Program-made: the position numbers and the translations under genes
Shown: piece after piece, positions 3,910 to 22,695 of the stretch
How positions within the stretch are numbered: the stretch's first letter is position 1
Layout: the number at the start of each line of letters is the position of its first letter
The notes under the pieces: generated by a model
Told to the model about the DNA's origin: nothing
What the model saw: only the letters and a program-made list of their open reading frames with translations
The model's database searches: none
Assembly (NCBI RefSeq): GCF_014191775.1
Contig: NZ_JACHXA010000004.1
Span: 124,001-188,000 of the forward strand
Source: Limibacillus halophilus
Lineage (GTDB): Bacteria > Pseudomonadota > Alphaproteobacteria > Kiloniellales > CECT-8803
Length of the DNA: 64,000 bases
Direction of reading: 5' to 3'

Positions 3910-5025
3910 TTAATAAAGAACAACGCTCCGAATTGATTTTCCGGCGTGCATCAAATCGAAGCCCTTGTTGATATCCTCCAGCGGCATGATGTGGGTGATC
4001 ATCTCATCGATGGCGATCTTGCCGTCCATGTACCAATCCACGATCTTCGGCACGTCCGTACGGCCGCGCGCGCCGCCGAATGCCGTACCGCGCCAGGACC
4101 GACCAGTAACCAGCTGGAAGGGGCGTGTCGAAATTTCCTGACCAGCGCCGGCGACACCGATGATGACGGAAACGCCCCAGCCTTTATGGCAGCATTCCAG
4201 AGCCTGACGCATCGTGTTCACGTTTCCGATGCACTCGAAGGAGTAGTCCGCCCCACCACCGGTCAGCGACACGAGGTAGGGGACAAGGTCACCCTCGACC
4301 TCCTTGGGATTGACGAAATGAGTCATGCCGAACTTTTCACCCAGCGCTTTGCGCTCGTTGTTTAGATCGACGCCGATGATCTTGTTTGCACCCACCATGC
4401 GTGCACCCTGAAGAACGTTCAGTCCGATACCGCCAAGGCCGAAGACAACGACGTTTGATCCGGGTTCAACTTTCGCGGTGTTGACAACTGCGCCGACACC
4501 AGTGGTGACGCCGCAACCGATGTAGCAAACCTTATCGAAAGGAGCATCGGGTCGAATTTTGGCCAGCGCGATTTCCGGCAAGACCGTGTAGTTGGCGAAG
4601 GTAGAGGTTCCCATGTAGTGGAGGATCGGCTTACCGTCGATCGAGAAGCGACTGCTGCCGTCGGGCATCAGACCCTTGCCCTGTGTTTCGCGGATGGCCT
4701 GGCAGAGGTTCGTTTTCGGATTGAGGCAGTACTCGCATTGCCTACATTCCGGGGTATAGAGAGGAATGACGTGATCGCCTGGCTTAAGCGAGGAGACGCC
4801 TGCACCCACCTCAACCACGACGCCTGCACCTTCATGTCCGAGGATCGCTGGAAACAGCCCTTCCGGATCGGCGCCGGACAGGGTGAAAGCGTCAGTATGG
4901 CAGATGCCGGTTGCCTTGATTTCCACCAGGACTTCACCAGCCCGTGGGCCTTCCAGTTGCACGGTCATGACTTCCAGCGGTTTGCCAGCCTCCAGGGCAA
5001 CAGCGGCGCGTACATCCATCTTCAA
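3910..5025 (-). CDS. frmA: S-(hydroxymethyl)glutathione dehydrogenase / class III alcohol dehydrogenase
   Basis: This zinc- and NAD-dependent enzyme oxidises S-hydroxymethylglutathione, formed from formaldehyde and glutathione, to S-formylglutathione. The 371-residue protein has the expected residues: catalytic zinc ligands Cys42, His64 (followed by Glu65) and Cys171, structural zinc ligands Cys94, Cys97, Cys100 and Cys108, and the NAD-binding GLGGIG at 196-201. The class III enzyme may also act as a nitrosoglutathione reductase. It is the first gene of a pair with fghA. A small perfect inverted repeat, GACAATAATTGTC, lies at 5125-5137, about 100 bases upstream of the start, and could be an operator. 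The gene has also been named adhI or flhA in other bacteria. Confidence 0.97.
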
Positions 5026-5206
5026 CTTCCTTCCTAAAGCACTTTTGGGGACGGTACCTGACCGACCGGATTATGTTTGGCGACAGACTTGCAGAAGGTG
5101 GTGGCGTATGACAAGGCTTGCGGCGACAATAATTGTCCTCTTGTCACGTGGGGCTGTTGTTTCCGGCTCTTGGCGATGGCGGCTTTGTCCGGGATTACAG
5201 CTCTTG

Positions 5207-5773
5207 CTAATCGAATACGCCCGGTTTGGTGACAAGCGGCATGAACTTGCATTCTGTGTAATAGATTTTTTTTTCTGGCCCTCCAAAAGGAGTCATATCT
5301 TGTGGATAAACGGAATCATCGAGTTTCTTTTTCAAAAGAAAGAAAATAACATTCGAAGTTATTTCATCATTCCGGTTAAGAAAATATGTAATGGGTTCTA
5401 TATAGAAATCTTCCAAATGAAATTTTATTAGAGGTGGGTCATTTAGTTGAATATATAGCGAGAAGGGAACAAAGAATCTGTTCCCTAATCTTATATAGTA
5501 ATAGTCCTGATCCACTAGGTACTCGCCTAGCGCGGATAGAAAATCCTCGCTTAACTCCCAATCGACAGGGCGTTGGTAGCTGTAATCTCCAGTTTCGCGG
5601 TTATAGCGTATATCGTCGCAATAGGGCGTAAAGGGGACAATAGGTAGTAAGAGGAGGGCGGTCAGCAGCAGGACCGGGATCAGCAGCGCCAAGGCCACCC
5701 GCCTGACCCAGACCGCTGACGCGGAGCGGCGCTTCTTCTTTGCCGCGCCGCTTTGACCGAACTCCTCCGCCAT
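5207..5773 (-). CDS. Hypothetical single-pass membrane protein
   Basis: I do not recognise this 188-residue protein. It has a basic N-terminus (AKKKRR near residues 11-16), one strong membrane helix at about 25-47, and a C-terminal domain of about 140 residues rich in Tyr, Phe and Asp, probably periplasmic. The 5' part has ordinary base composition, but the stretch 5260-5560 coding for the C-terminal domain is clearly A/T-rich compared with its neighbours. It starts 46 bases after the stop of the 687-codon gene on the same strand, so the two probably form an operon. No homologous family comes to mind; a partner, anchor or immunity-like protein for the upstream product is only a guess. Confidence 0.7.
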   Translation of the reverse strand: MAEEFGQSGAAKKKRRSASAVWVRRVALALLIPVLLLTALLLLPIVPFTPYCDDIRYNRETGDYSYQRPVDWELSEDFLSALGEYLVDQDYYYIRLGNRFFVPFSLYIQLNDPPLIKFHLEDFYIEPITYFLNRNDEITSNVIFFLLKKKLDDSVYPQDMTPFGGPEKKIYYTECKFMPLVTKPGVFD

Positions 5774-5819
5774 CCACCCTTACCCCCTTCATCCTCAAGC
5801 TTCGCTGAGGGGTATTCTC

Positions 5820-7883
5820 CTATGGCGACGGTCGCAGCGCCGACCACTCAGGGTTCGTTACCTGCCGCAACCCTTGCTTGCCATTCTTGTCGGTTATTAT
5901 CTCAAACTCAAGGGTCATATCCTGCTCAGCGCGAGAGCGTACTTCAAAATCCGCACCCAAGCCCAGTTCACGTAGGGTCACGCGGTAAAGATCGGTCATC
6001 AGATCATCGCTGTTCGAGCTGAAGTTGTAATCCAAGCGATGCTTGATTTTTCCTGTAGCGAAAACTTTGTTACCCCGTCTTTCAAAAGATATTTTGCTGT
6101 CGCTTTGTAGAGCCTGGTGCTGAGACGCGGGCGTGTTGGCAAGTGCAGTACGCTGGCCGCCCCGTCCTTGGAGGTCTGCGGTAGTTGTCCCTCCATCCTC
6201 CAGCCGCAACATTGTTTGCTGCAGGGGCGATGGCTCGGGCAAGGTTTCCAGCGTTGTGGGGTCGATGCCAATAATTTGCGCTTCAATCGCTCTTTGATGG
6301 TCAAAGAGAAAACCTTGTGTTTCAGGGTTTTGTTCCAGAGATTGCGAGAAGTCTATCTCCATCACGCCGTCGGCGTCGGGATCCAGGAAGCGTTCTAGGA
6401 GCTTCGCGGCCTCCTTATCGCCAAGTTCCCGGCGCAGTACAACGGCAAGATCGCCAGCGCTTTTGAGCAGTTCTTCTGTCGTGCCAACGGCATCGGGAAC
6501 CCGACCGCGTGAAGCAATGAAAACAGAAGTGTCGACCAGGACTTCGGCAATCAAACCCGCAATCTTTTCTTGGCGTTCGCGTTTCTGCCTGCGTTCTTGC
6601 GGGGGCGCTTCGCTGATTGCCTCTTCGATGTCCTGCTGCAATTGTTGGACGAATTTACCACTATTGCCCAAAAATCGTTTGTTCAGAGCAGATGGCTGTG
6701 CGGTGTTTGGTGGTTTTGGCCGTTTGCTTTGCTGATCGGTTGATAAGAGTGCAGTTGCAATCGGCGGCGGCGTCTTGGGAGCGGTGGTTGCTGGTGTTTC
6801 GCTTTTCCCCTGCCCACCGCTTTCTCGATTCGAGGGGCCTTTGTCCGTAGTTTGACGGGTGACGTTTTGGCCGTCGTTTTGATTGGAGGGCGCTGTTTCC
6901 CTTGCCTTTTGATCGCCCAGGGTGACGACGCTGCTCTGGGGCAAGCGGGCTAAAGGTGTCTGCAGGCTCTGCGATTCCGGGAAGGGATTCCGGAACCCAT
7001 CGTCCGGGCGCGGCGTTCCTCCGCTTTGCGGCTGGTCTACTTGCGCCTCTGGCTTTGCTTGTGCGGACGCTGGACTGTCAGGTCCGTCCTGTGCCTTGCG
7101 GTTGCTGATTGGCTGAGGCTCTCTATCGTTGGGGTCATGCGGATTTCGTCCAGTATCCTCTGCCCCCGGTTTTCTCGGGGAGGCCTGGCTGGCGACATCA
7201 TCCCGCTCACTGCCGGAGCCCGGCTGGCCGCCAGAGCCCGGCTGGCTTTTCTGCGCATTCCTCTCTGGGTTAATTTGGATGGAAGTCTCCTTACCGGAGG
7301 CGCTTTCCTTTGTGCCGCCGTTGTTAAAAGCGCTTTGGGCTGCGGGTTTTGCAGCCGCTGTGTTGCCAGGGCCGCCGCGCGGCGGCGCATCGTCAGACGC
7401 CGTCTCGTTCGTGCTGGTGGTGCCCGCAGGTTTTGCCGAGCTTGCAGCCGGTCCGGACCCTGGCTTGGCGCCGTTTGGCAGCGCGCCATTGCCAGAGGTG
7501 GTTGTGTTGGATGCCGCCGTGCCGGGAGCGCGCAGAGGCTGCCCGTCCCGCAAATTGACCGGCGCAGAAACGCGTGGGCCCTCGGGATCGTCCTTGACCT
7601 TGGCCGGATCGAAAACCAAGCCTTTGTCTGTAATCTCAAAGCCGTCCTCGGCCATCTCTTCACGGAAGCGCAGGCCAACCTCATCCGGGATCGGGCTTTT
7701 GGCCTTTTGCGTCATGGTGCGGGTGAACTCGAACGCCATGCCGCCCGGGCTGACGGGATCGAAGGGGTTTTTAGAATTGCGGTCGACCATGGCCATGACC
7801 GTCGGGCTGAGAACGGGCCGTCCGTCGGGTCGGCGTTTGGCCATTTCCTCGGCTAGCTCCTCGGTATTTTTTGCAAATTTCAT
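5820..7883 (-). CDS. Hypothetical 687-residue protein with long disordered region
   Basis: I do not recognise this protein. Residues 1-125 are charged and soluble, with no signal peptide. About 125-395 is low-complexity, dominated by Ser, Gly, Pro, Gln, Asn, Thr and Lys, and surely disordered. About 395-520 looks helical and contains DPDADG at 501-506, the first half of a calcium-binding EF-hand or dockerin-like loop. The last ~100 residues, beginning near KISFERRGNK, look like a folded alpha/beta domain. The ATG at 7883 is preceded by an A/T-rich intergenic stretch. Several long antisense frames exist here, as expected for repetitive G/C-rich coding, and are not genes. It may be a secreted or scaffold-like protein working with the downstream membrane protein. 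Confidence 0.75.
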   Translation of the reverse strand: MKFAKNTEELAEEMAKRRPDGRPVLSPTVMAMVDRNSKNPFDPVSPGGMAFEFTRTMTQKAKSPIPDEVGLRFREEMAEDGFEITDKGLVFDPAKVKDDPEGPRVSAPVNLRDGQPLRAPGTAASNTTTSGNGALPNGAKPGSGPAASSAKPAGTTSTNETASDDAPPRGGPGNTAAAKPAAQSAFNNGGTKESASGKETSIQINPERNAQKSQPGSGGQPGSGSERDDVASQASPRKPGAEDTGRNPHDPNDREPQPISNRKAQDGPDSPASAQAKPEAQVDQPQSGGTPRPDDGFRNPFPESQSLQTPLARLPQSSVVTLGDQKARETAPSNQNDGQNVTRQTTDKGPSNRESGGQGKSETPATTAPKTPPPIATALLSTDQQSKRPKPPNTAQPSALNKRFLGNSGKFVQQLQQDIEEAISEAPPQERRQKRERQEKIAGLIAEVLVDTSVFIASRGRVPDAVGTTEELLKSAGDLAVVLRRELGDKEAAKLLERFLDPDADGVMEIDFSQSLEQNPETQGFLFDHQRAIEAQIIGIDPTTLETLPEPSPLQQTMLRLEDGGTTTADLQGRGGQRTALANTPASQHQALQSDSKISFERRGNKVFATGKIKHRLDYNFSSNSDDLMTDLYRVTLRELGLGADFEVRSRAEQDMTLEFEIITDKNGKQGLRQVTNPEWSALRPSP

Positions 7884-8061
7884 CGCTGAACCTTTAAGAA
7901 AAATAGGGGATAAGCAAAAAATATAGGCGAAAAAGAATGATTATCAAATATAATGGTAATAAAACTAGAAAAATTGTCAAAATTTTTCGCTATTCCGGCT
8001 TGCAGGGTGCATTCGCGCAGGCTTAGGCTCGTCGCGCTTGGCCGAAGGAGGAACGAGTACT
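7884..8061. other. A/T-rich divergent intergenic region
   Basis: These 178 bases separate the divergent 687-codon gene and the class II aldolase gene. Bases 7890-7995 are strikingly A/T-rich with many A and T runs, unlike nearly everything else in the window. They probably hold promoters for both genes; no specific operator is evident. Confidence 0.5.
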
Positions 8062-8790
8062 ATGGACAGTATCCAACAAGCGCGGGTTGACCTGGCAGCC
8101 GCCCACAGGCTTGCCGCACGCTATGGCTATCACGAAGGTGTCTGCAATCATTTCAGCTATGCCATTCCGGATATGGATGATCGGTTTCTCTTGTCGCCTT
8201 ATGGTGTTCATTGGTCACAAGTGCGTGCGAGCGATCTCCTCCTGGTCAATGCCAAAGGCGAGGTCATCGAAGGGAATGGTTATGCCGAGACGTCGGCCTT
8301 TTGCATCCATGCAGCCGTTCATCTGGCGCACCCGAGGGCTGCCTGTGTGCTGCACACTCATATGCCTTATGCAACAGCCCTGACATCACTTGAAAATTCC
8401 GAGATTCTGCCGATCAGCCAGAATTCCCTGAGGTTCTATCAGGATGTGGCCTACGACAACGACTACGGCGGATTGGTCCATGATATGGAGGAGGGCGCGC
8501 GGCTTGCCTCCAATCTAGGCAACAAGCGGGTCCTGATGTTGGGCAATCACGGGGTAATGGTTGTTGGGCCGACCATCCATCAGGCCTTTGATGATCTTTA
8601 CTATCTGGAGCGCACCGCGGAGCTACAGGTGTTGGCTTATTCGACCGGCAAACCGCTGCGGTTAATGGGGGAGAACCTCGCGCGCCATACGAAGACACAG
8701 TTCGATGAAGAGCGTGACCGCTACAGCCGGATTCACTTTGATGGCTTGCTGCGGATTCTCGATCAGGAGAGCCCTGAGTTCAGAAACTAG
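8062..8790 (+). CDS. Class II aldolase/adducin family protein
   Basis: This is a 242-residue zinc-dependent class II aldolase of the fuculose-phosphate aldolase/adducin fold. Members cleave or epimerise sugar phosphates or related hydroxy-acids; the substrate cannot be read from sequence. The metal-binding histidines are visible as H98 and H100 (VLHTHMPYA) and H163 (LGNHGVM), with E76 in YAETSAF as a possible catalytic acid. I chose ATG 8062 because AAGGAGG lies ten bases upstream; an in-frame TTG at 8038 would add eight residues but lacks a site. The gene stands alone and ends in a hairpin shared with the convergent gene. No sugar kinase or isomerase is adjacent, so a catabolic pathway cannot be assigned. 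Confidence 0.88.
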   Translation: MDSIQQARVDLAAAHRLAARYGYHEGVCNHFSYAIPDMDDRFLLSPYGVHWSQVRASDLLLVNAKGEVIEGNGYAETSAFCIHAAVHLAHPRAACVLHTHMPYATALTSLENSEILPISQNSLRFYQDVAYDNDYGGLVHDMEEGARLASNLGNKRVLMLGNHGVMVVGPTIHQAFDDLYYLERTAELQVLAYSTGKPLRLMGENLARHTKTQFDEERDRYSRIHFDGLLRILDQESPEFRN

Positions 8791-8865: not shown

Positions 8866-9831
8866 TTATTCGGCGGCGATGGCCTGTGCCGCCCGGCGCT
8901 GCAATTCTTCGCCCAGGAATTCGGCAAGTTTCTGCGGGCCGGTCTTGGCAAGCTTCGCCGAGCGCTCGGCTCCATTATTGTAGTTTGTGTTCGTATTGAT
9001 GTCGTAGGTATAGATGTTGCCTTCGATATCGCGGATGAACTCGATACCGGCAACTTCAACGCCGTTGTCCGCGAGGACCTTTTCCAACGTCGAGATAAGC
9101 GCTGGATCAATATCATCAGTAATCTGGAATTTCGGCGCTTCTTCCTGATCTGGGGTCGCCGGGCAGAAGGCGTCGCCGACCGCGCAGGCGTCCGCAGGGC
9201 AAAGCTCAAATCCCTGGCTGGTATCGACCCGTACGGCATAGTGGAAACGTCCGCCGATGAACTCCGCACGCGTGATGTAGGGCTCCGCAGGCCGGATGTA
9301 CTGCTGGATCAACCAAGTGCCATCGACAGGCGCCTCATACTCCGGACTTTCAAGATAAGCGGCCAAGCTTTCCAAATCTTGGAATAACTGAACGCCCAGG
9401 CCTTTCCCGCCACGGTTGGGCTTCAGGATAAGCGGTAGCTCCGCAAAGGCCCGAGCTGCTGGTAGCACCGCGTCCTTGCCGACGGCAATGCGCGTGCGTG
9501 GCGTGCGGACGCCCGCCGCTTGGAGCGCGGCATACTGTGCAACCTTGCTGACCTCCAGGTACAAAGCACGGCTGCCGTTGACAACCCTGCGCCCGTTCAA
9601 TTCTAGCCAGTTCAGGACATGTTGGGTGTAGGAGGGTGCGTGGGTGTGCCCGCGCGTATGAGCTGAGGCGCTCATACGGCTATAGAAGATGCCTTCCGGC
9701 GGTTGGGAATCGAATGATAGAACGCCTTCATCAAGATGCCATTCCTCGAAATCCAGGCCCGCAGATTCCAGAGCCGACCGGAAAGGCGGCAACCACTCAT
9801 CATTCTCGTGCAGAATATAGATCTTCGACAT
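8866..9831 (-). CDS. ATP-grasp domain protein, RimK/glutathione-synthetase-like
   Basis: This is a 321-residue ATP-grasp ligase. Such enzymes join a carboxylate to an amine or thiol through an acyl-phosphate. Seen in the sequence are the central ATP-binding segment (LILKPNRGGKGLGVQLF, about residue 135) and the C-terminal metal-binding part with Glu in GIEFIRD and Asn in YDINTNTNYN. The first ~110 residues form an unusual pre-ATP-grasp domain. I chose ATG 9831, 19 codons inside the longest frame, because MSKIYILHE is a natural start and GGAGCGG lies upstream. The substrate is unknown; alpha-L-glutamate ligase or tetrahydromethanopterin-like ligases are distant alternatives. It has its own promoter region downstream of the cox maturation genes. 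Confidence 0.78.
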   Translation of the reverse strand: MSKIYILHENDEWLPPFRSALESAGLDFEEWHLDEGVLSFDSQPPEGIFYSRMSASAHTRGHTHAPSYTQHVLNWLELNGRRVVNGSRALYLEVSKVAQYAALQAAGVRTPRTRIAVGKDAVLPAARAFAELPLILKPNRGGKGLGVQLFQDLESLAAYLESPEYEAPVDGTWLIQQYIRPAEPYITRAEFIGGRFHYAVRVDTSQGFELCPADACAVGDAFCPATPDQEEAPKFQITDDIDPALISTLEKVLADNGVEVAGIEFIRDIEGNIYTYDINTNTNYNNGAERSAKLAKTGPQKLAEFLGEELQRRAAQAIAAE

Positions 9832-9940
9832 TTTTGCCGCTCCATATTTTACGCATAAAATGCGTGAAATAGTGAATATCACACTCAATAATGAGATTAA
9901 GTGGAGGCATTAAGACTCTTCAAGTGGGAAATACAAAAAT

Positions 9941-11590
9941 TCACGAATCTGTGCGCAGAGCGGCGAGGGCTTCGGGTGTGTCGATATCTTCCAAAATGCT
10001 GCGATCATCGATTGCGATCTCGGCTACCAACTCCGGATAATCGCTAAGCAGATGTCGTGCGCCGACGTCACCATGGAGCGTTTGCAGTTCGGCAAAGAAC
10101 TGGCGGGATATCAGAACTGGATTGCCGCGTTTACCCTGCCACGTCGGCAGGCAGATCGAGCGCCCTTCCACCGGATTGAAACCAGCGATGATGCTATTTA
10201 TGACGGCGGTCGAAATGCGTGGCATATCACCGAGCATGATTATAACACCATCTGGCTGACCGGGGAGGCTCGCCAATCCCCGTTTTAGGGATGAAGCGAG
10301 CCCGCTGGCGTAATCCGGATTATGGGCGAAAACGAGCTCCATATCCGCGAGTGCGCTTGTAACTTCTTGTGCTTGATGACCGGTAACGACGACAAGGTCG
10401 CTTATCTGCGCGGCCTTTAGGGCTTCGACTGCATGGCGAACCAAAGGCTTGCCGTTGACGTCCGCCAGGAGCTTGTTGGCATGCCCCATGCGCCGTGACT
10501 GTCCTGCGGCCAGCAGCAACGCCGCAATTTTGGGTGCCCGCGGTGCCAGCGCACGGCCCTCATGTTCGGGATCAGGCGTTCCTTCAACGGCAAAAGAACG
10601 CGGCAGGGGTCGTTGGGCTATCTCCATCAATAGGCCGCCGGCACCCATTTGCATGATATCTCGAGATCCAACGGGTAGATCACAGAGCAGGCGTTCCAGA
10701 ACCCAATCGAAACCGTTGACCTTGGGCGATCGGGCGCAACCGGGCAACCCCAGCACCGGCAGGCCATCCCACTCCGCAAGCAGCAGAAGATTGCCTGGGT
10801 CTACCGGCATGCCGAAGTGAAGAACCGTTCCGCCGGCTTGCGCGATGCCTTGGGGAACAACGTCGCGCCGGTCGACGATGGCCGACGCTCCCGATACGAG
10901 AAGCAGTTCGCACCCCTCCGCTTGGAGTTCCTCCAAGGCGCTGGAAATTGCAGAAGGATCGTGGGCGCAGCGGCGTTCTTTAGCTGGGGGGCAGTCGAGG
11001 TGAGCTAGGCGCTGATTCAGGGCGGCAACAGTCTTGTCTAGTAAACTGACCTTCATACCTGACAGTTCGGTTTGTACCAGTCCTATTTGCCGCGCTCGAA
11101 GCGGGGCGACGCTGATCAGCGGTTCATTGCCGAGCGTTTGCATCGCTTGGTCAATAATCTTCCCGTTTGCGGCGAAGGGAATCATCTTAACCGTGGCCAC
11201 CATCTGGCGCGGTTCGACGAGGCCATAGGGTGGCACCGTTGCAATGGTGATGCACTCATCGGTCAAGTTGAAGGCATCAAGCCGACCTCTGTCGATCACT
11301 GCCAGTCCGCGCGCCTGGGCAATAAGATTGCAGCGCCCGGTAAAAGCTGCGGTCTGATTCAGGTTAGCACCACGAATAGCCGCGGCTACCATCGCCGCGG
11401 CTTCGTCTTCGTGCAGGTCTCCACGCGCCATGCGAGCGACGGTGACCTCTTCAATGCCTGCGGCGAGCAAGGCTGTAACGTCTCCCTCACTCAGCTTACG
11501 ACCCTTCTTGAAGTTTGATTTATCAAAGCGGATCGAATGGGCGAGCAATGAACCGGCAGCATCGCGGCTATTGACCTTGCAAAAGTCCAT
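9941..11590 (-). CDS. mocA: Fused MoCF-like / MocA-type molybdenum cofactor cytidylyltransferase
   Basis: This 549-residue fusion has an N-terminal part (about 1-330) like molybdopterin-binding MoeA/MogA-type proteins, and a C-terminal nucleotidyltransferase (about 355-549). The latter begins with LLLAAGQSRRMG and a following NKLL, the NTP-binding signature of the MobA/MocA family. MocA transfers CMP to molybdopterin, making the cytosine dinucleotide form used by CO-dehydrogenase and xanthine-dehydrogenase-family enzymes. That fits its position as last gene of the cox maturation operon: its ATG shares one base with the XdhC stop codon (TGATG). GTP rather than CTP use cannot be excluded from sequence alone, but the context supports CTP. 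Confidence 0.88.
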   Translation of the reverse strand: MDFCKVNSRDAAGSLLAHSIRFDKSNFKKGRKLSEGDVTALLAAGIEEVTVARMARGDLHEDEAAAMVAAAIRGANLNQTAAFTGRCNLIAQARGLAVIDRGRLDAFNLTDECITIATVPPYGLVEPRQMVATVKMIPFAANGKIIDQAMQTLGNEPLISVAPLRARQIGLVQTELSGMKVSLLDKTVAALNQRLAHLDCPPAKERRCAHDPSAISSALEELQAEGCELLLVSGASAIVDRRDVVPQGIAQAGGTVLHFGMPVDPGNLLLLAEWDGLPVLGLPGCARSPKVNGFDWVLERLLCDLPVGSRDIMQMGAGGLLMEIAQRPLPRSFAVEGTPDPEHEGRALAPRAPKIAALLLAAGQSRRMGHANKLLADVNGKPLVRHAVEALKAAQISDLVVVTGHQAQEVTSALADMELVFAHNPDYASGLASSLKRGLASLPGQPDGVIIMLGDMPRISTAVINSIIAGFNPVEGRSICLPTWQGKRGNPVLISRQFFAELQTLHGDVGARHLLSDYPELVAEIAIDDRSILEDIDTPEALAALRTDS

Positions 11591-12300
11591 CAGGCCGTGT
11601 CTCCCGGGGTCAGAGGCGGGGCAGCGCGCAAGACCTGGGTTATCTGCGCCATCACTGAAACGGCTATTTCAGCCGGCGATTTTGCACCGATTGATAGGCC
11701 TACAGGCCCTTGGATACGTGCGAGCGCTTCTTCGCTCGCGCCCTCCGCACGTAGGCGGGTCAGGCGCTTGGCATGGGTTCGTGTCGACCCCAGGGCGCCG
11801 ATATAAAAGACGGGCGATTTGATGGCGGCGAGCAAGGCAGGGTCGTCGAGTTTAGGGTCGTGTGTCAGGGTGACAACGGCCGTGCGGCGGTCCAATGCCA
11901 GATCTGACATGGCCTCATCGGGCCAGGAGTCTACGCACCTGATTCCCGGGAACCGTTCTTCGGTTGCCCAAGCTTTGCGTGGGTCAATCAGAACGACATC
12001 GTACCCGGTCATCTGCGCCAGGGGCGCCAGGGCTTGCGCGATATGAACCGCACCGACCAGAACCAGGCGCAATGGGGGATTGAAGACTTGCAGGAACCAG
12101 CGGTCCTCGTACAGCCCGCTGCGGTCATCGCGTAAAGCCTTCCGAATTGCCGCGAACAGTTCGGCATCAGGCTTGAAGTCGCCATCGGCCTTGCCGTCGA
12201 TTACCAGACACTGCTGGCCGGATTCGATGTTGGTAACCAAGACCGTTTCCAGCTTGCCTCGTCTAGCCTCCAGGAGCTTGTCGAGCAGGAGGCGCTTCAT
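11590..12300 (-). CDS. XdhC family protein, C-terminal (Rossmann) half, CoxI-like
   Basis: This 236-residue protein corresponds to the C-terminal half of XdhC/CoxI. XdhC proteins bind the molybdenum cofactor, promote its sulfuration and insert it into the hydroxylase. The centre (residues ~95-190) is the Rossmann-like domain, with LVLVGAVHIAQALAPLA and VVTLTHDPKLDDPALL. The end carries PVGLSIGAKSPAEIAVSVMAQI, a hallmark of the family. The ATG at 12300 overlaps the previous stop as ATGA, so the 13-codon-longer frame is not used. Together with the separate 105-residue gene upstream it makes one complete XdhC; the two halves are usually fused in xanthine dehydrogenase operons. Confidence 0.92.
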   Translation of the reverse strand: MKRLLLDKLLEARRGKLETVLVTNIESGQQCLVIDGKADGDFKPDAELFAAIRKALRDDRSGLYEDRWFLQVFNPPLRLVLVGAVHIAQALAPLAQMTGYDVVLIDPRKAWATEERFPGIRCVDSWPDEAMSDLALDRRTAVVTLTHDPKLDDPALLAAIKSPVFYIGALGSTRTHAKRLTRLRAEGASEEALARIQGPVGLSIGAKSPAEIAVSVMAQITQVLRAAPPLTPGDTA

Positions 12301-12614
12301 ACCAAGGACTCCACGAATACCTTTACCGTGCCACCACAAGCCAAGCCAACCGACCAGGCGTCCTCATCGGTAACACCAAAGGTCAGGAGCTTTGGCGGTG
12401 CGCCTTCCATGATCTGACGCGCTTCGTGCACGACTGCGCCTTCGATGCAGCCGCCGGATACCGAGCCGACCATGCGGCCGGTTTCATCTACGGCCAACTG
12501 GCTGCCAACCGGGCGCGGTGAGGAACCCCAAGTTGCCACGACGGTCGCCAGGGCCACCTTGTGTCCCTGGTCTTGCCAGTTCGTGGCCGTTGCGAGAACA
12601 TCTGCTTCGATCAT
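12297..12614 (-). CDS. XdhC/CoxI family protein, N-terminal half
   Basis: This 105-residue protein matches the N-terminal XdhC_CoxI domain: VALATVVATWGSSPRPVGSQ near residue 20, GSVSGGCIEGAVV around 50, and GLACGGTVKVFVE near the end. The conserved Cys residues in these motifs are thought to help handle the sulfurated cofactor. The ATG at 12614 overlaps the coxE stop codon as ATGA, which I prefer. An alternative ATG at 12632 has AGGAGG ten bases upstream and would add six residues. Its own stop overlaps the start of the C-terminal-half gene, so the two halves are tightly co-translated. Confidence 0.9.
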   Translation of the reverse strand: MIEADVLATATNWQDQGHKVALATVVATWGSSPRPVGSQLAVDETGRMVGSVSGGCIEGAVVHEARQIMEGAPPKLLTFGVTDEDAWSVGLACGGTVKVFVESLV

Positions 12615-13855
12615 GCTGACTTTCCTATCCATTGGCTTGCGGCCTCCTCTCGTGCCGGCGGGTCGGCGCTAAGTGCGGCGGCCAAATCGGCCAAACTGTT
12701 TATGCTATGGGCGCTGCGGAGTTCATCAACGTGACCGATCATCGCGCTGGCACCCTGTGATTTCGGTGCATAGGCGTCATACCGCAAGAGGGGGTTGAGC
12801 CAGATCAGGCGCCTGCAGGACTTGTGCAAGCGCTCCATCTCCTCGCCAACGCCGCGGGCGCCTTCACGGTCCAATCCGTCTGTGATTAACAAGACGACGG
12901 CCCCTTGTCCAAGTACCCGCCTGGACCACTGTCTGTTGAAATCCTTCAGGCACCCACCGATTCGCGTGCCGCCCGACCAATCCTCAACCTCGGCTCCCAC
13001 CTTTTCCAGTGCTACGTCAATGTCCTTGTAGCGGAGCTGGCGCGTGATGTTGGTAAGCCGCGTTCCAAACACGAAGGAATGGACACGGTCCCGGTCGTTG
13101 CTCAAGTGGTGCATGAAATGGAGAACCATTCTTGAATAGCGTGCCATGGAGCCGGAAATGTCGCAAAGGACGGTCAAGGGGGGGCGGCGTGTGCGAGGCT
13201 CTTTCCAGTTGAGAGGAATGTGATCGCCCCCACCACGCAAACTGGCCCGCAGCGAGGCCCGAAGGTCTATTCGACGTCCATGCGGCGCTGCACGGAACCG
13301 TCTCGTCTTTACTTCTTGCAAGGGTAATTTCAAAGCTCTTATGGCGCGTTTTGCCGCTTCCAATTCATCGAGCGACATCTTCTCAAAATCCATTTCCTGG
13401 AGTCGTTCACGAGCGGAATAGGTGAAACTGGCATCGACTTCTATTTCTTCTTCCGCATTTTCCTGCGGCTCTTTCGGCGTCTGACGGGGCGGCGAGAAAG
13501 CATCAGCAACGCGCCTGCTGATTTCCTGCTCGGCAGCGTCGCGCAGACCGTCCGCCGTCACATCCGGCAACAACAACCCCTTCAACTTGTCCAGTATCTT
13601 TGGGTTGCGCCAGAAAAGATGGAAGGTCTGGTCGAAAACTTCCTGCTGATCGCGCCGATTTACGAAGGTGCTATGGAGTGTCCAATAGAAATCACGGCGC
13701 TCGCCGATGCCGACGGCGGTTATGGCCTCCAGGGCTTCGTGAACCTTTCCAGGGCCGACCGGTAGCCCTGCAGCCCTAAGCGTTCTGGCAAAGTAGAGGA
13801 CGTTTTCCGCCAGGCGGCCTTCTTCGGCTGTGATCTGTCCATTTTGGGTGGTCAT
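12611..13855 (-). CDS. coxE: CoxE-like VWA domain protein
   Basis: This 414-residue von Willebrand factor A protein is of the CoxE type. In CO-dehydrogenase clusters CoxE works with the AAA+ ATPase CoxD in maturing the [CuSMoO2]- or Mo-containing active site. The metal-ion-dependent adhesion motif DISGS is at 232-236, followed by a typical VWA fold (GGTRIGGCLKDF and VVLLITDGLD). The N-terminal 200 residues are the helical VWA_CoxE region, with an acidic low-complexity stretch around 130-145. It starts two bases after the coxD stop, and its own stop overlaps the next start. Confidence 0.95.
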   Translation of the reverse strand: MTTQNGQITAEEGRLAENVLYFARTLRAAGLPVGPGKVHEALEAITAVGIGERRDFYWTLHSTFVNRRDQQEVFDQTFHLFWRNPKILDKLKGLLLPDVTADGLRDAAEQEISRRVADAFSPPRQTPKEPQENAEEEIEVDASFTYSARERLQEMDFEKMSLDELEAAKRAIRALKLPLQEVKTRRFRAAPHGRRIDLRASLRASLRGGGDHIPLNWKEPRTRRPPLTVLCDISGSMARYSRMVLHFMHHLSNDRDRVHSFVFGTRLTNITRQLRYKDIDVALEKVGAEVEDWSGGTRIGGCLKDFNRQWSRRVLGQGAVVLLITDGLDREGARGVGEEMERLHKSCRRLIWLNPLLRYDAYAPKSQGASAMIGHVDELRSAHSINSLADLAAALSADPPAREEAASQWIGKSA

Positions 13856-13857
13856 TT

Positions 13858-14802
13858 TTAAACGCCGGGAAGCCCGACCATATCCTGCTTTACCTCATCC
13901 AGAAGACGTGCGGCCTCGCTTCCTTGAATCTTCTGGATATCGTCCTGGTACTTCAAAAGAACGCCAAGCGTGCTATCGATCGTTTCCGGGTCCAGAGCGA
14001 CTTTATCGAGTTGGGTTAAAGCATCGGCCCAATCAATGGTTTCGGCCACTCCTGGGAGTTTGAAAAGGTCATTTCCATGCCGCAAGCGCTGGATGAAGGC
14101 TACGATCTGGCGAGACAGGGCGTCCGCCGCCCCGGGCGCCTTGATCTTGAGGATTTCAAGCTCCCGCGCCGCGTTGGGATAATCGACCCAATGATAGAGG
14201 CAACGGCGCTTCAGGGCATCGTGAATCTCCCGGGTGCGATTAGAGGTGATGATGGTGATTGGCGCTTCCGCCGCCTTTATAGTGCCGAGTTCAGGAATGC
14301 TGACCTGAAAATCGGACAGGAGTTCCAGCAGGAAAGCCTCGAACGGCTCATCCGTGCGGTCCAATTCGTCGATCAACAGAACCGGCGCGCCGCCGATGCC
14401 GGGCCGCAGAGCTTGGAGCAGGGGGCGCTCGATGAGAAAGCGCTTGGAGAAGATGTCGCTCTCCAAACGTTCGCGATCCCGATCGCCCGCCGCTTCGGCC
14501 AGCCGAATCTCCATCATCTGGCGCGCATAGTTCCACTCATAAACCGCAGAGTTTACATCCAACCCCTCATAGCACTGCAGGCGGATTAGTGGCCGCCCCA
14601 AGGCGGTTGCCAGGACCTTGGCAATCTCGGTCTTGCCGACCCCGGCTTCGCCCTCCAGGAAAAGTGGGCGGCCGAGCTTTATTGCCAGAAATAGAACGGT
14701 GGCTAGACTGCGCTCGCCGATGTATTGCCCGCGTTTTAGCAGTTCCAATGTCTCATCGACATTCGCGGGTAAGGCGCAGTGCGCCGCAGAATCATCCGCC
14801 AT
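13858..14802 (-). CDS. coxD: CoxD-like MoxR-family AAA+ ATPase
   Basis: This 314-residue MoxR-type AAA+ ATPase has Walker A GEAGVGKT at 51-58, Walker B VLLIDELDR further on, and the sensor region TIITSNRTREIHDALKRRC. CoxD is needed in the studied cox clusters for functional assembly of the metal site and partners CoxE. The ATG at 14802, with AGGA six bases upstream, is favoured over the longest frame starting at 14823. It is the first gene of a five-gene maturation unit, coxD-coxE-xdhC(N)-xdhC(C)-mocA, whose junctions overlap or are separated by two bases. Confidence 0.95.
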   Translation of the reverse strand: MADDSAAHCALPANVDETLELLKRGQYIGERSLATVLFLAIKLGRPLFLEGEAGVGKTEIAKVLATALGRPLIRLQCYEGLDVNSAVYEWNYARQMMEIRLAEAAGDRDRERLESDIFSKRFLIERPLLQALRPGIGGAPVLLIDELDRTDEPFEAFLLELLSDFQVSIPELGTIKAAEAPITIITSNRTREIHDALKRRCLYHWVDYPNAARELEILKIKAPGAADALSRQIVAFIQRLRHGNDLFKLPGVAETIDWADALTQLDKVALDPETIDSTLGVLLKYQDDIQKIQGSEAARLLDEVKQDMVGLPGV

Positions 14803-14896
14803 ACTTTCCTCTCGAAGGACCAATGTTGCCTATGAGAAGGAGACTATAGGGGCAAGGGTACGCCTGACAACGCGCCGGACCACCGCAGTGTTCGAA

Positions 14897-15268
14897 TTAT
14901 TTTTGGACCCAGCTTCCATCGGCGCGCTGGAACCACGTGCCGGCGGGCGCTTTTTGAAGGATTTGCGCGGCATAGACCTTGCCGACTTCCTCGGCGGTGA
15001 CGCCCTGTTGTGCGGCTCGACTAGCGTAAATTTCCTTGCGCTGAGCGTTGACTTGAGCAGCGACGCTCTTGGCTGAGGCGTTGCCTGAATCGCGCACTAC
15101 GAGCAATCCGTCAAAGCGTTCGCCGACAGCGCCTGATTTACGCAAATCGTCAAGTTGGTCGGCCTTAGCCTTTTTGAAGGTGTAGGTCAGACCCAAAGTG
15201 CTGGCCGCGATAGCCAAGCCGCCGAACAGCAAGAACTTGCGTCGTGAGGTGAATGTGCCGTTTCGCAT
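14897..15268 (-). CDS. ydbL: YdbL family (DUF1318) periplasmic protein
   Basis: This 123-residue exported protein belongs to the YdbL/DUF1318 family. The N-terminus has RRKFLLFGGLAIAASTLGLTYTF, a signal peptide with a basic twin-Arg-like n-region. The mature part has the family pattern of Gly-Glu-Arg-x-Asp-Gly and a helical region rich in Ala, Gln and Arg. In Escherichia coli YdbL is encoded with YnbE and YdbH, and is thought to modulate the YdbH-YnbE bridge that carries phospholipids between the two membranes. The same three-gene order is present here, 15 bases after ynbE. Confidence 0.88.
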   Translation of the reverse strand: MRNGTFTSRRKFLLFGGLAIAASTLGLTYTFKKAKADQLDDLRKSGAVGERFDGLLVVRDSGNASAKSVAAQVNAQRKEIYASRAAQQGVTAEEVGKVYAAQILQKAPAGTWFQRADGSWVQK

Positions 15269-15283
15269 GGTTTCCTCGCCGCC

Positions 15284-15478
15284 TTAAAAGATTCCCGGAT
15301 TGCTCTGAATATCTTCGCGCGCCTGCTCTTCAAGCTTCACGCGGACTTCAGCATCCAGTTTGACATTCAAATTGATGGTGATGGGTTCCTTTGGAGCCTC
15401 GACCTTGACGGTCGGCGTGCAGGCCGAAAGGAATAGTAAAGCTGCCAGCACCGACCCGGCTGCCAGGAGCCCGTTCAT
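15284..15478 (-). CDS. ynbE: YnbE family outer-membrane lipoprotein
   Basis: This 64-residue lipoprotein has lipobox LSAC (Cys about residue 20) after a short hydrophobic signal. It then has an extended segment (TVKVEAPKEPITINLNVKLD) that in YnbE stacks as beta-strands at the outer-membrane end of the YdbH bridge. I chose ATG 15478 because it gives the usual YnbE length of about 60 residues; a longer in-frame start at 15553 would place 25 unneeded residues ahead of the signal. It lies between ydbH and ydbL. Confidence 0.9.
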   Translation of the reverse strand: MNGLLAAGSVLAALLFLSACTPTVKVEAPKEPITINLNVKLDAEVRVKLEEQAREDIQSNPGIF

Positions 15479-15620
15479 CGCCGGTATGTTGCTCTCTTGC
15501 GCCACTATCGCGTCGCTGGGCTTCGCAGCAAATTTTTGCATCCGCACCGTCATCCATCCCCTGGCGTCTTAGGCCAGTTTTCCTGTGCCCGCTTCATCCA
15601 CATATGCTGTCATTCTATTG

Positions 15621-18600
15621 TTACGGTGGCGAGAGGGAATATCTCCCCGAACGTTTCAATAAAAGTTCACCAATCGACGTGCCCTGCCGCAAAGCAGCCA
15701 GCAAAGACGTTGGATCCGTCGTAAGGTTAAAATTAAGCCTGAAGGGATAACCATCTAGAACATTTGGATTTCTTCCCTCTAGCCCTATAGAGAAAACCAA
15801 CTCTTTATCGTTTGGCTTATCAAGATGGAGTTGGAGATCGTTGTATTGAAAGTCTTCCAGTGCATCGAGCATCAAAGAGACGCTTTCGCCCCCGCCCGAC
15901 AAGGCTTGTCGAGTCGCTTCGTTGTTGTAGCGGATCGTGCCAACTTGCGTGTCGTCCAGGTTGGCGTTTGCAATGGTCACGGTGCCGCTGGTAAAGGCCA
16001 GTGGAACCTGGCCCGCGAGGATACCGGTAACTTGCAGCCCTTCGACATCAATGAGTTCGGCAAGTGCGCTCAGGTCCAGGCGGGTGAAACTCAAGGAAGC
16101 GCGGCCGTCTCCGCTTGCAAGGGAGTAGGCGCCATCCGTCAAAAGCAGGGGGCCGAGAAGACTTTGTGCTCTGGCTTCCTTGATTAGCAGCGTCGGCTCG
16201 CTGGTTTCTGCCGCCGGTTCTATGGAGAAAATCAAACGCACGTCGGTGAGGGGCAAGCCGGGATCGAAGCGCGACAGTGTGACCTCCTGATCGCCTTCAG
16301 TTGCGATTTTGATCATATCTCGAAACGACAGGGTACCGTTTAGTCCCTTCAGCGGCATATCGGCGTAACGTAGCGCCAGATCGGTGAGGGTTGCCGTCCC
16401 TTTGCCTTTCAGGTTCCTGCCATCCCAACCAAGTGATCCTGTCAAAGCCACAGTTCCCTCAACCTCTCGGAGGGAGGCGAGAAGGGGGCTGATTGCGAGA
16501 GGTTGTAAACCGCCCTTTTCGAAAACCACGGTTGTGTTGGGCAAACTGAGAGAAAGGTGAGAATAATCGCCAGCAAAAGATCCCAAAAACCCCAATTTTA
16601 CCAGACGGTCCGCGAAATACACTTCGCCGGAAACGTCCGTTTTATCACTGCGCCGCGGCTTAAACGAGACATTCAGCCTTGCGGGCCCAGCCAGGATCGG
16701 ATGCGTAACGGCGTCGGCGGTCAACCGCGCATCGCCCTTGCCAACGGCGAGACGCGGTAGAGCTTCCAGATCAAGTGCACCGGCAAATTGTAGGCCGTTA
16801 ATTTTCAGTTCCTGGTCAGGGACCTGAAGCCCCCCGATTTTGAGATCGGAAAGCAATGCACCTTCGGACATGGATAGCTTCATCGATAGATTGCTTGCCT
16901 GCGTCGCGGGAACGCTTCCGGAGAGGCGCACTGCGGGTGCTTGTACGTCCAGGGTGAGGTCCTTGATGCTTCCTTCTTTAACCGATAGTTTCAAATCGTT
17001 GATGTTTAACGGCTTTTCTAAGATAATTCGTTTACCGGCAAGGGTGATGGGCGCACTGCTCGTCAGACTTCCAGGCTCTCTGCTCCGAAGAAAGATCGTT
17101 TCATTCTGAAACTCGGCATGGAGTGGCAAAGCACCGCGCAAATCTTCGCCAATGAGGCCGATCGATCCGTTGAGTGCTGTTTCGCCTAACGCATGACTGG
17201 CGGCACCATTGTATGTAATCGTGTGCAGTGGGATTGGCAGGCCTTTCAAACCAGACAGGCCAACCTCCAAGGCGCTACTTTCCAGACTGAGAGGGCGCCA
17301 GCCCGGACCCAGGTTTCCCTGAACGCGGCCACGGATCGAGACCTGTCGGCCCGCTGCGTCACTTAGGGCCAAATCGCTTATGACCTCGAACGGGTTTTCG
17401 CCTGTGAGGTTTGGCGCAATCTTGAGGCTCATTGGGCCCGAGAGGGTTAAGGGCTCCAAAGGCACTGCGAGGTTGTTCTGTTCGAATGGTATAGTTATTG
17501 CGCTTTTTATATAGTCGGTTATGGATGTTATTGAAAGTAATGTATCAGGTGAAAAATCTAAGAAAAGGAGCGTCCGGTCGGCGGACAATATTACGTCGGT
17601 ATAGCCGGAAACTCGGGCGAGTTCCGTTATGGCAAGATTTTTAAATGTTCCGGTGAAACGAAGATGAGGCTCCAGGTTTCTATAGGCCGAGAGGAGATCG
17701 CTGTCGGGCTGGGCCGCAGGCGGACCGGCCGGTAGCAACCCATCGGCAGTAAATGTGCCCTTCAGTTCCATTTCCCGGCCGAGATAGGAAGCAAGGAACG
17801 ATTGGATCGCGCTGCCCTCCGTGCTTTCCAGTGAACCGGCGAGACTGAAACGTGGAACGTCGGACAACGCCTTGATTGTGCCGGCCAGTGTCAGGCGAGA
17901 CAGTCCGTTTGCTTCGTTGGTGTCGGTGTTGAAGCTGATTTGCTCTCGATCGACCGCGACCGTGAGATTGTTCTGCCAGTCGCCTGGAATGCTGGGGAAG
18001 TCCCGCATTTCGCTGCTGGATTCCAAATCCAACGTAAGGCCACTTTCGACCATCAATGTTTGCCAAGTGCCACGGCTCTGCGGGATTGGCAGACCCCATG
18101 GAACGCGTTGGAGATGAGCTGTTCCCTTTAGTGACAGACGCCTCAGTTGGAAAGGAAGCAAGCTGGATACGAAAGTGGTTACTGCTTCATCCTCGTCGAA
18201 GTTGAGGTCGCTTTCCAGGATGATAGGTTGCTCCGCATCGAACTCAGGGGCGCGTAATCTGATGGTCCCGGCGGCTTCTGGAGGACCGAGCGTTAGCGAC
18301 GCGTTGAATCCTAGGTCCGGACTTATTTCGGCAGCGAGTTCAACCGGTCCAAGCGCCTTTTCCTGCCAGGATAGATCCGCGCCTTTGGCATGCAGGTACG
18401 CCGCCGTGACGCGGCCACCATCCAACGTGATTTGGCTTTCGATCTCCAGCATGCCGAGATTGCTAACAGCGTTGCCTGAAAGCGAGAATGCCTGACCATC
18501 GCCGCTTCCAGATACGGTTACAGTTACAGGACCTATTGTTGTTTCGAGCGTGATACTGCCGTTGCTTATCTGGATTGGAGGAAGAAGAGGAAGGTCAGGT

Positions 18601-18953
18601 AGCGTTGGAATGGCCGGGAAGTGCGATAATTCCGCCGTGGTGCCGCTGTCGTCCTTGGCATAGCGGTAGTGCACGCCCTCGAGCGCGAGGTTCTCCAGGC
18701 GGCTATCGAGCAAGCTGGCGAGGCTGAATTTCGCTTCCAAGCGTGCAAAGGACAGACCAGGAGCCGTGAGGTTGCTGATAACAAGGCGATCGAAGGCAAG
18801 TTCGCTGACCTTGAAATGATCGGCCTTTAGCCAGACTGACATAACTTCGGCGAGAAGGCGTTCTGCCAGTGTCAAACGCGCCAACCACAGTCCGCTCAGG
18901 ACCAGAGCCAGAACAGCGAAAGAACCGGTGATGATTTTCCAGCGACGCTTCAT
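15621..18953 (-). CDS. ydbH: YdbH-like AsmA-family intermembrane bridge protein
   Basis: This 1110-residue protein has one N-terminal membrane anchor (about 8-28) and a very long, beta-rich periplasmic region with the Leu/Ser/Gly-rich repeating pattern of AsmA-like proteins. The C-terminal ~200 residues hold the YdbH domain, formerly called dicarboxylate transport domain, including GTIRYNNEATRQALSGGG. YdbH, YhdP and TamB are partly redundant in E. coli and form hydrophobic grooves for anterograde phospholipid transport to the outer membrane. It is encoded with ynbE and ydbL, its known partners. The length is larger than the E. coli protein (about 880), which may reflect a wider periplasm or extra repeats. 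Confidence 0.9.
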   Translation of the reverse strand: MKRRWKIITGSFAVLALVLSGLWLARLTLAERLLAEVMSVWLKADHFKVSELAFDRLVISNLTAPGLSFARLEAKFSLASLLDSRLENLALEGVHYRYAKDDSGTTAELSHFPAIPTLPDLPLLPPIQISNGSITLETTIGPVTVTVSGSGDGQAFSLSGNAVSNLGMLEIESQITLDGGRVTAAYLHAKGADLSWQEKALGPVELAAEISPDLGFNASLTLGPPEAAGTIRLRAPEFDAEQPIILESDLNFDEDEAVTTFVSSLLPFQLRRLSLKGTAHLQRVPWGLPIPQSRGTWQTLMVESGLTLDLESSSEMRDFPSIPGDWQNNLTVAVDREQISFNTDTNEANGLSRLTLAGTIKALSDVPRFSLAGSLESTEGSAIQSFLASYLGREMELKGTFTADGLLPAGPPAAQPDSDLLSAYRNLEPHLRFTGTFKNLAITELARVSGYTDVILSADRTLLFLDFSPDTLLSITSITDYIKSAITIPFEQNNLAVPLEPLTLSGPMSLKIAPNLTGENPFEVISDLALSDAAGRQVSIRGRVQGNLGPGWRPLSLESSALEVGLSGLKGLPIPLHTITYNGAASHALGETALNGSIGLIGEDLRGALPLHAEFQNETIFLRSREPGSLTSSAPITLAGKRIILEKPLNINDLKLSVKEGSIKDLTLDVQAPAVRLSGSVPATQASNLSMKLSMSEGALLSDLKIGGLQVPDQELKINGLQFAGALDLEALPRLAVGKGDARLTADAVTHPILAGPARLNVSFKPRRSDKTDVSGEVYFADRLVKLGFLGSFAGDYSHLSLSLPNTTVVFEKGGLQPLAISPLLASLREVEGTVALTGSLGWDGRNLKGKGTATLTDLALRYADMPLKGLNGTLSFRDMIKIATEGDQEVTLSRFDPGLPLTDVRLIFSIEPAAETSEPTLLIKEARAQSLLGPLLLTDGAYSLASGDGRASLSFTRLDLSALAELIDVEGLQVTGILAGQVPLAFTSGTVTIANANLDDTQVGTIRYNNEATRQALSGGGESVSLMLDALEDFQYNDLQLHLDKPNDKELVFSIGLEGRNPNVLDGYPFRLNFNLTTDPTSLLAALRQGTSIGELLLKRSGRYSLSPP

Positions 18954-19044
18954 GGTAGGAAAAGCCTAACCTTCAGCGTATGGGGCCGCAAAGAAAGAAC
19001 CGGGGCCACGCAGACCCCGGCTCTTCTTTACGGTGGGGCTTTGT

Positions 19045-19842: not shown

Positions 19843-19856
19843 CCTTCTGTCCTCCC

Positions 19857-22223: not shown

Positions 22224-22227
22224 TGTC

Positions 22228-22695
22228 TCACCCTCCCATCTCGTCGGCTGCGGCCTGGATGGCCTTGACGATGTTCTGATAGCCGGTGCAACGACAGATG
22301 TTGCCCTCCAGCCAATCTCGAATTTCTGTCTCGCTGGGTTTCGGGTTCTCCTGCAACAGATCCACCGCGCTCATCACCATGCCAGGTGTGCAAAAGCCGC
22401 ACTGCAATCCGTGGTGTTCCCGGAAGGCTGCCTGCATGGGATGCAATTCGCCGTTCACCGCAAGCCCTTCAATCGTGGTCACTTCCGTATCGTTGGCCTG
22501 AATCGCCAGCATGCTGCAGGCTTTTACCGACTTACCGTTCACATGTACGACGCAAGAGCCGCATTGACTGGTATCGCAACCGACGTGTGTGCCGGTAAGG
22601 CGCAGATTTTCACGCAAAAAGCTGACCAGCAAGGTGCGGGGTTCGACCTCCGCCGAAACCTGCTTGCCATTCACTTTCATGGAAACGCTGGGCAT
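22228..22695 (-). CDS. coxS: [2Fe-2S] small subunit of the CODH-type hydroxylase
   Basis: This 155-residue electron-transfer subunit carries two [2Fe-2S] clusters. The plant-type ferredoxin ligands are C40, C45, C48 and C60. The helical-domain ligands are C99, C102, C134 and C136 (CGFC and CRCTGY). Length and motif spacing are normal for the family. I chose ATG 22695, which has AGG close upstream, over a longer frame from 22767. It is the first structural gene of the S-L-M set. Confidence 0.97.

What the first reader, a model, noticed from the sequence alone, without database searches (positions are those of the whole stretch)
5207..7883. Unrecognised two-gene locus: a 687-residue disordered protein and a one-helix membrane partner
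Seen: the two genes are co-directional, 46 bases apart, between formaldehyde genes and an aldolase. The larger has no signal, a ~270-residue Ser/Gly/Pro/Gln-rich linker, a DPDADG loop at 501-506 and a folded-looking C-terminus. The smaller has one membrane helix and an A/T-rich coding end. I know no named family for either. Inference: a secreted or scaffold protein with a membrane partner or immunity-like protein.
Basis: partly seen in the sequence, partly recalled or inferred. Interest (0 to 1): 0.6.

Follow-up and report, generated by a model that had tools for sequence, protein, structure and literature searches.

The report
Probable polymorphic toxin and immunity pair
The two unrecognised genes most likely encode a modular weapon protein that harms rival bacteria and the membrane-bound protein that protects its maker; they belong to a small, apparently undescribed family that also occurs at three other places in the same genome.

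Summary
In detail: minus strand, a 687-residue protein (5820-7883) and, 46 bases downstream, a 188-residue one-helix protein (5207-5773). Neither matches a known family above cut-off.

The linker had hidden the key fact. Searched alone, residues 1-110 match three other proteins of the same genome and, weakly, one in the only other held genome of its family, well above 500 shuffles. Their C-terminal tips differ: those of the window protein and of protein C resemble no other; those of A and B are related. A and B share 982 bp at 98.8% identity, from 201 bp upstream to about codon 260, then diverge. Each of the four genes has a candidate immunity gene beside its 3' end: membrane-type for window, A and B; a row of soluble paralogs for C; plus a relic beside A. 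This is polymorphic-toxin organisation. The nearest relative has the same flanking genes without the pair.

Toxicity, immunity, target and export are not shown. TssC (type VI) and the contractile sheath family were not found in the genome. A colicin-M-like tip is only a weak lead.

The parts
5820..7883 (-). Large gene, 687 aa: inferred polymorphic toxin
   Evidence: Open frame; N-terminal domain shared with three paralogs
7518..7883 (-). Shared N-terminal domain, residues 1-122; inferred export/trafficking domain
6720..7571 (-). Low-complexity linker, residues 105-388, rich in Pro, Ala, Ser, Gly, Thr, Gln (overlaps the end of the aligned N-terminal region)
   Evidence: Composition
6249..6701 (-). 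Mostly helical middle region, residues 395-545, holding DPDADG at 501-506
   Evidence: Low-confidence model; position
5823..6110 (-). C-terminal tip, residues 592-687, strand-rich in low-confidence models; inferred toxin module
   Evidence: unrelated to the tips of paralogs A, B and C
5207..5773 (-). Small gene, 188 aa: inferred cognate immunity protein
   Evidence: Open frame 46 bases downstream; no family match
5636..5692 (-). Single membrane-like segment of the small protein, residues 28-46; Cys52 and Cys175 lie beyond it
   Evidence: Hydropathy scan
7918..7980 (-). Sigma-70-like matches upstream of the large gene (consensus scan only)
   Evidence: 4 promoter-like sites in 4900-8200, mean 1.5 in shuffles, three of the four overlapping here
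5026..8061 (.). Stretch between adhC and the aldolase gene that holds the pair; the relative G001 has 544 bases here and no match to the pair

Best explanation
The pair is one member of a small polymorphic toxin-immunity family. The large protein carries a shared N-terminal domain, inferred to direct export, then a long disordered linker and a variable C-terminal tip, inferred to be the toxin. The small protein is inferred to be its cognate immunity protein: it sits in the producer's inner membrane by one helix and shows its C-terminal part, perhaps with a disulfide between Cys52 and Cys175, to the periplasm, where it would block toxin arriving from sister cells. The target would then be in the periplasm or at the inner membrane. 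Shown here: the shared N-terminal domain, the differing tips, the adjacent partner genes, the sharp end of the A/B identity, the row of related partner genes at C, the relic partner gene at A, and the absence of the pair between the same genes in G001. Inferred: toxicity, immunity, topology, target and export.
For: N-terminal paralogs in the own genome at E 1.2e-7 (two) and 4.5e-5; 50.4 bits against a best of 24.3 in 500 shuffles; 0 of 300 shuffles reach the real score in each of 6 pairwise comparisons of window, A, C and G001 N-termini. Window tip against tips A, B, C at chance: 16, 15 and 58 of 100 shuffles as good. A and B: 982 bp at 98.8% from 201 bp upstream to about codon 260, then divergence. 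Candidate immunity genes beside all four own-genome toxins; partners A and B homologous; partners P0009-P0013 behind C related; relic of a B-type partner beside A. G001 lacks the pair between the same flanking genes. The logic of constant 5' part, exchanged tip and strings of immunity genes is that of PMC3482391 (passages).
Against: No known toxin, immunity or trafficking domain in the pair or in P0003-P0012 above a curated cut-off. Tips A and B are related to each other, so the A/B break is divergence or replacement inside one tip type, not a swap of unrelated toxins. Partner A is convergent with its toxin rather than co-directional. P0008 has no segment over my hydropathy cut-off. The N-terminal domain was found convincingly in two genomes only. 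No export machine was identified: TssC and the contractile sheath were not found.
Confidence: 0.75

Rival explanations
1. A special case of the best explanation: the tip is a diverged colicin-M-like domain acting on lipid II in the periplasm, and the small protein is an immunity protein of the Cmi/BmiB/PmiB type.
For: The small protein has one N-terminal helix and two cysteines beyond it, the anatomy that PMC5821083 gives for Cmi, and for BmiB/PmiB as putative periplasmic partners encoded downstream on the same strand (section 9). The tip holds LDYNFSSNSDD at 617-627; the same paper reports a degenerate ColM motif IXYNX5LK in a hybrid bacteriocin (passage).
Against: Pfam scans of the whole protein and of pieces gave no Colicin_M match; the genome search for PF14859 was negative but its control was silent, as it was over 398 genomes. 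Of the catalytic signature only the Tyr and the spacing are kept. The region that looks folded is about 95 residues, short for a ColM domain (recalled). The low-confidence model has no ColM structure among the 50 of 385 rows shown.
Confidence: 0.1
2. The N-terminal-domain proteins are a lineage-specific family of cell-envelope or scaffold proteins that vary fast and act inside or on their own cell, with no antagonism; the membrane partners anchor them.
For: No toxin domain is recognised in any of them. The family was found convincingly in two genomes of one family only. No export machine was identified.
Against: The row of related soluble genes behind C, the relic partner beside A and the sharp end of the A/B identity are expected for toxin-immunity loci and need a separate reason here. 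Partners differ in type between members: window partner unrelated to A/B partners (145 and 121 of 200 shuffles as good).
Confidence: 0.12
3. The pair is an intracellular toxin-antitoxin or anti-phage system rather than an exported weapon.
For: Two-gene organisation and presence/absence between relatives.
Against: No PADLOC match for the six proteins scanned, P0001, P0002, P0003, P0005, P0007 and P0009. A constant N-terminal domain with variable tips and strings of partner genes is typical of exported toxins (PMC3482391, passages). A partner that shows its main part to the periplasm (inferred) does not suit a cytoplasmic toxin.
Confidence: 0.07

Closest known systems
Polymorphic toxin systems as a class (PMC3482391; abstract passages and other passages seen)
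   Same: Constant N-terminal part, exchangeable C-terminal tip, candidate immunity gene beside the 3' end, a string of related immunity-like genes, relic immunity gene.
   Different: No described trafficking, toxin or immunity domain matched; the export route is unknown; no RHS or filamentous repeats, but a disordered linker.
ColM (colicin M) bacteriocins and their one-helix immunity proteins (PMC5821083; passages and section 9 seen)
   Same: One-helix partner with two cysteines encoded downstream on the same strand; a Y-N-X5 stretch in the tip.
   Different: No Pfam match, catalytic signature not kept, no fold match among the rows seen.
Type VI secretion effectors with N-terminal marker domains (recalled)
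   Same: Orphan effector-immunity genes scattered among housekeeping genes, N-terminal marker without a signal peptide.
   Different: TssC not found in the genome; the N-terminal domain matched no described family in the libraries searched.

Membership tests
Polymorphic toxin systems | A constant N-terminal domain shared by several proteins | tested here: met
   window protein, A, B, C in the own genome, and one in G001
Polymorphic toxin systems | Variable C-terminal tips on that domain | tested here: met
   window tip at chance against A, B and C; C at or near chance against A (2 of 100) and B (22 of 100); A and B tips related
Polymorphic toxin systems | Candidate immunity gene beside the toxin's 3' end | tested here: met
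   co-directional for window, B and C, convergent for A. Position only, not function
Polymorphic toxin systems | Strings or remnants of immunity genes | tested here: met
   Row behind C; relic beside A. None seen at the window pair itself
Polymorphic toxin systems | A recognised toxin domain | tested here: not met
   Pfam and NCBIfam give none above cut-off; novel tips are common in the class, so I do not take this as exclusion
Polymorphic toxin systems | A recognised trafficking domain or export system | tested here: inconclusive
   No domain match; TssC and sheath not found; types I, II, III, IV and V not searched
Polymorphic toxin systems | Toxicity neutralised by the partner | not testable with these tools
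   Needs an experiment
ColM (Pfam PF14859) bacteriocins | Match to the Colicin_M profile | tested here: not met
   at E up to 10 list no Colicin_M; negative with a silent control
ColM (Pfam PF14859) bacteriocins | Catalytic signature (D-X-Y-D-X5-H-R, recalled; variants) | tested here: not met
   Tip reads L-D-Y-N-X5-D-D at 617-627
ColM (Pfam PF14859) bacteriocins | ColM fold | tested here: inconclusive
   Model mean pLDDT 57.1; no ColM structure in the 50 of 385 Foldseek rows shown, none at E<=0.001
ColM (Pfam PF14859) bacteriocins | One-helix immunity protein with two cysteines (one of several known types) | tested here: met
   segment 28-46, Cys52 and Cys175; homology to such proteins not tested
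Type VI secretion effector | A type VI secretion system in the same genome | tested here: not met
   PF05943 (TssC/VipB) absent in G000, control rings in E. coli
Extracellular contractile injection system cargo | A contractile sheath in the same genome | tested here: not met
   PF04984 absent in G000, control rings in 3 of 14 control genomes

The most novel reading that the evidence does not exclude
The shared N-terminal domain is the address label of a polymorphic-toxin export route other than type VI secretion or a contractile injection particle, found so far in one small bacterial family, with three unrelated and unrecognised toxin tips (window; A/B; C) and their own new immunity families attached to it.
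Probability: 0.35. Interest if true: 0.75.

Novelty: new variant of a known kind. Interest (0 to 1): 0.52.

Why it matters
It turns two orphan genes into members of a recognisable class of bacterial weapons and supplies a handle, the N-terminal domain, for finding more. If the domain is an export signal, it points to a delivery route in a genome where the markers of both contractile systems were not found, and its tips and partners would be new toxin and immunity families. It also shows how a low-complexity linker can hide such a family from whole-protein searches.

Tried and rejected
Family scans of the pair, whole and in pieces: only sub-threshold hits, such as DUF7877 (E 0.0069, 17.2 bits against a cut-off of 27) and DUF3482 (0.016, 15.1 against 29.2); rejected as chance. 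PDB sequence searches: none for the large protein, best 1.2 for the small one, best 1.3 for the last 98 residues.

Relatives of the whole large protein: 5 of 61 genomes of the order at E<=0.01, one the own genome and four at 0.0047-0.0062 (three in the middle region, one in the linker); rejected as chance. Residues 390-687: 2 of 385 genomes of the class at E<=0.01, the own genome and one at 0.0093; rejected. Small protein: 1 of 58 genomes, its own. Plasmids, phages and viral contigs: no relative; two stray plasmid hits at E 5 and 0.6. Named genome contigs: none confirmed for the large protein or for the A/B partner alignment.

N-terminal domain: 4 of 61 genomes at E<=0.1, the own genome, G001 (0.0039) and two at 0.027 and 0.065 taken as chance. 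Its profile: 5 of 61 genomes of the order at E<=0.05; G000 (4 places) and the first G001 place built the profile, a second G001 place (4.4e-9) is a contig start overlapping it, and three genomes at 0.020-0.032 are taken as chance. Class: 3 of 385 at E<=0.01, G000 and two at 0.0016 and 0.0028, which 385 searches can give by chance; there at most 11 candidates per genome were scored, so distant members may be missed. I looked at the 0.0028 locus (it reads as ABC-transporter genes) and not at the 0.0016 one.

ColM: thought of from memory, then tested; kept only as a rival. Two immunity domains within P0012: hinted by weak BLAST pieces, not supported by a direct comparison (score 26, no shuffle run); dropped. 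Structures: both single-sequence models too weak to use; Foldseek 0 of 385 matches at E<=0.001. PDB profile hits of the N-terminal domain (best 0.027) and of the partners behind C (best 0.02, antibody chains; 60 of 126 rows shown) rejected. P0013 was not scanned against any family library.

Full report
What is there. The two genes are open frames on the minus strand at the stated coordinates: 687 codons at 7883->5820 and 188 codons at 5773->5207, with 46 bases between them. The large protein has no membrane-like segment and no cysteine; the small one has a single membrane-like segment at 28-46 and two cysteines, 52 and 175. The charges around the helix (7 basic and 2 acidic in the 27 residues before it; 3 basic and 7 acidic in the 30 after it) suggest N-terminus in, C-terminus in the periplasm (positive-inside rule, recalled). 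The last 294 bases of the small gene are 34% G+C against 56% for the window.

No known family. Pfam and NCBIfam gave nothing above a curated cut-off for either protein, whole or in pieces; PHROGs gave one weak hit each, E 0.065 and 0.18; PADLOC none. Searches with the whole proteins or the C-terminal half in the order, the class, plasmids, phages, viral contigs and named genome contigs gave no convincing relative (not every query was run in every collection).

What was hidden. The low-complexity linker crowds the whole-protein search. With residues 1-110 alone, 61 genomes of the order gave four places in the window's own genome: itself, C8:103479-103772 and C10:117821-118114 (E 1.2e-7 each) and C8:163813-164085 (4.5e-5). 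G001, the only other held genome of the same family, had one at 0.0039; two more genomes at 0.027 and 0.065 are at chance level. The likeness is not composition: 50.4 bits to A against a best of 24.3 among 500 shuffles (418 of which gave any hit), 36.6 to C and 30.0 to G001. In each of the 6 pairwise comparisons of window, A, C and G001, 0 of 300 shuffles were as good.

The family. A (L022 4923-6848 minus, 641 aa), B (L023 7747-9657 plus, 636 aa) and C (L024 6727-7647 plus, 306 aa) share this domain. Beyond it they differ. The window tip against tips A, B and C is at chance (16, 15 and 58 of 100 shuffles as good); C against A and B is at or near chance (2 and 22 of 100); A and B tips are related (score 158, best of 100 shuffles 100). 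A and B agree at 254 of their first 255 residues, and their DNA is 98.8% identical over 982 bp, from 201 bp upstream of the start to about codon 260, where the near-identity ends. So the upstream region and N-terminal part were copied or kept alike while the rest was replaced or diverged.

Partners. Beside toxin A's 3' end, convergent with it, lies a 357-residue protein with two membrane-like segments; behind B lies a 327-residue protein with no segment over my cut-off, though its N-terminus looks hydrophobic to the eye. The two are homologous (score 299, 0 of 200 shuffles; 34% by BLAST). Each has exactly two cysteines, as the window's small protein has. The window's small protein is not detectably related to them (145 and 121 of 200 shuffles as good). 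Between the pckA-like gene and partner A, a 60-bp stretch is 86.7% identical to the 3' end of partner B; on toxin A's strand it reads the partner's last residues up to a stop: a relic. Behind C stands a row of six small frames. The five I compared (P0009-P0013) give BLAST matches to one another, some strong for such short proteins (down to 5.9e-7) and some weak, P0012 weakest (database of 13 proteins); none has a membrane-like segment. P0003-P0012 match no Pfam or NCBIfam family above cut-off; PHROGs gave weak hits only, best E 0.0077 to a family of unknown function.

Setting. In G001 the genes beside the window pair are collinear (the 2328-2960 gene, fghA, adhC, aldolase, then the genes from 9941 on), with 544 bases where the window has about 3 kb, and neither protein of the pair matches the fetched 19-kb stretch. 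The pair is therefore an insertion here or was lost in G001. The G001 copy of the N-terminal domain lies at a contig end that shares an exact 119-bp overlap with the start of another contig. An assembly graph gives this at a branching repeat, so two or more copies are possible there; this is not shown.

Mechanism. This is the organisation described for polymorphic toxins in PMC3482391 (passages seen): constant 5' part, exchangeable tip, immunity gene beside it, strings of former immunity genes. I conclude that the large protein is an exported toxin and the small one its immunity protein. Membrane-type, two-cysteine partners for window, A and B suggest targets in the periplasm or inner membrane; soluble partners for C, four of the five with several cysteines, suggest a cytoplasmic target (inference). 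Tips A and B hold glycine-rich hydrophobic stretches that could insert into membranes (my reading, not tested; no segment passed the hydropathy cut-off).

Export. TssC was not found in the genome, the control ringing in E. coli, nor the contractile sheath family, the control ringing in 3 of 14 genomes. Other routes were not searched. The N-terminal domain matches nothing in Pfam or NCBIfam and nothing of weight in the PDB (best 0.027). It may serve an unrecognised route, or a known one I did not test.

A specific guess. The tip's LDYNFSSNSDD (617-627) and the partner's anatomy recall ColM bacteriocins and their one-helix, two-cysteine immunity proteins (PMC5821083; passages and section 9 seen). 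But of the catalytic signature only the Tyr and the spacing are kept, Pfam's ColM model does not match (the genome searches had silent controls), and the weak model shows no ColM structure among the 50 of 385 rows shown. I give it 0.1.

Novelty. Four searches of the paper library, with terms for colicin M and type VI immunity, for polymorphic toxins with alphaproteobacteria and trafficking, for contractile-system effectors, and for glycine-zipper polymorphic toxins (listings and starts of abstracts seen), showed no description of this domain in the rows listed. That is a limited search of an open-access library. I file the finding as a new variant of a known kind: the class is known; the N-terminal domain, tips and partners matched nothing I searched.

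Noticed in passing
L022 3596-3655 (G000 C8 100595-100654): 60-bp relic, 86.7% identical to the 3' end of partner gene B, next to toxin A and on its strand: sign of an earlier immunity gene.
   Followed up: partly
L024 7640-10609: Row of six small frames behind toxin C; five compared are related, like a homogeneous polyimmunity locus. No Pfam or NCBIfam match for the four scanned (P0009-P0012).
   Followed up: partly
L023 7546-8527 and L022 (toxin A upstream region and first ~260 codons): A and B share 982 bp at 98.8% identity including 201 bp upstream, suggesting recent copying or gene conversion between distant loci.
   Followed up: partly
window 8866-9888: An ATP-grasp-like gene (my reading) also has no match in the collinear G001 stretch, where the aldolase gene is followed almost at once by the next shared gene.
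   Followed up: no
L025 1-119 and L037 1-119: Two G001 contigs overlap by exactly 119 bp inside the N-terminal-domain gene, as at a branching repeat in an assembly; there may be more than one copy in G001.
   Followed up: partly
window 9941-23595: Genes that look like an aerobic carbon monoxide dehydrogenase cluster with maturation genes (reading of the frames, not searched).
   Followed up: no
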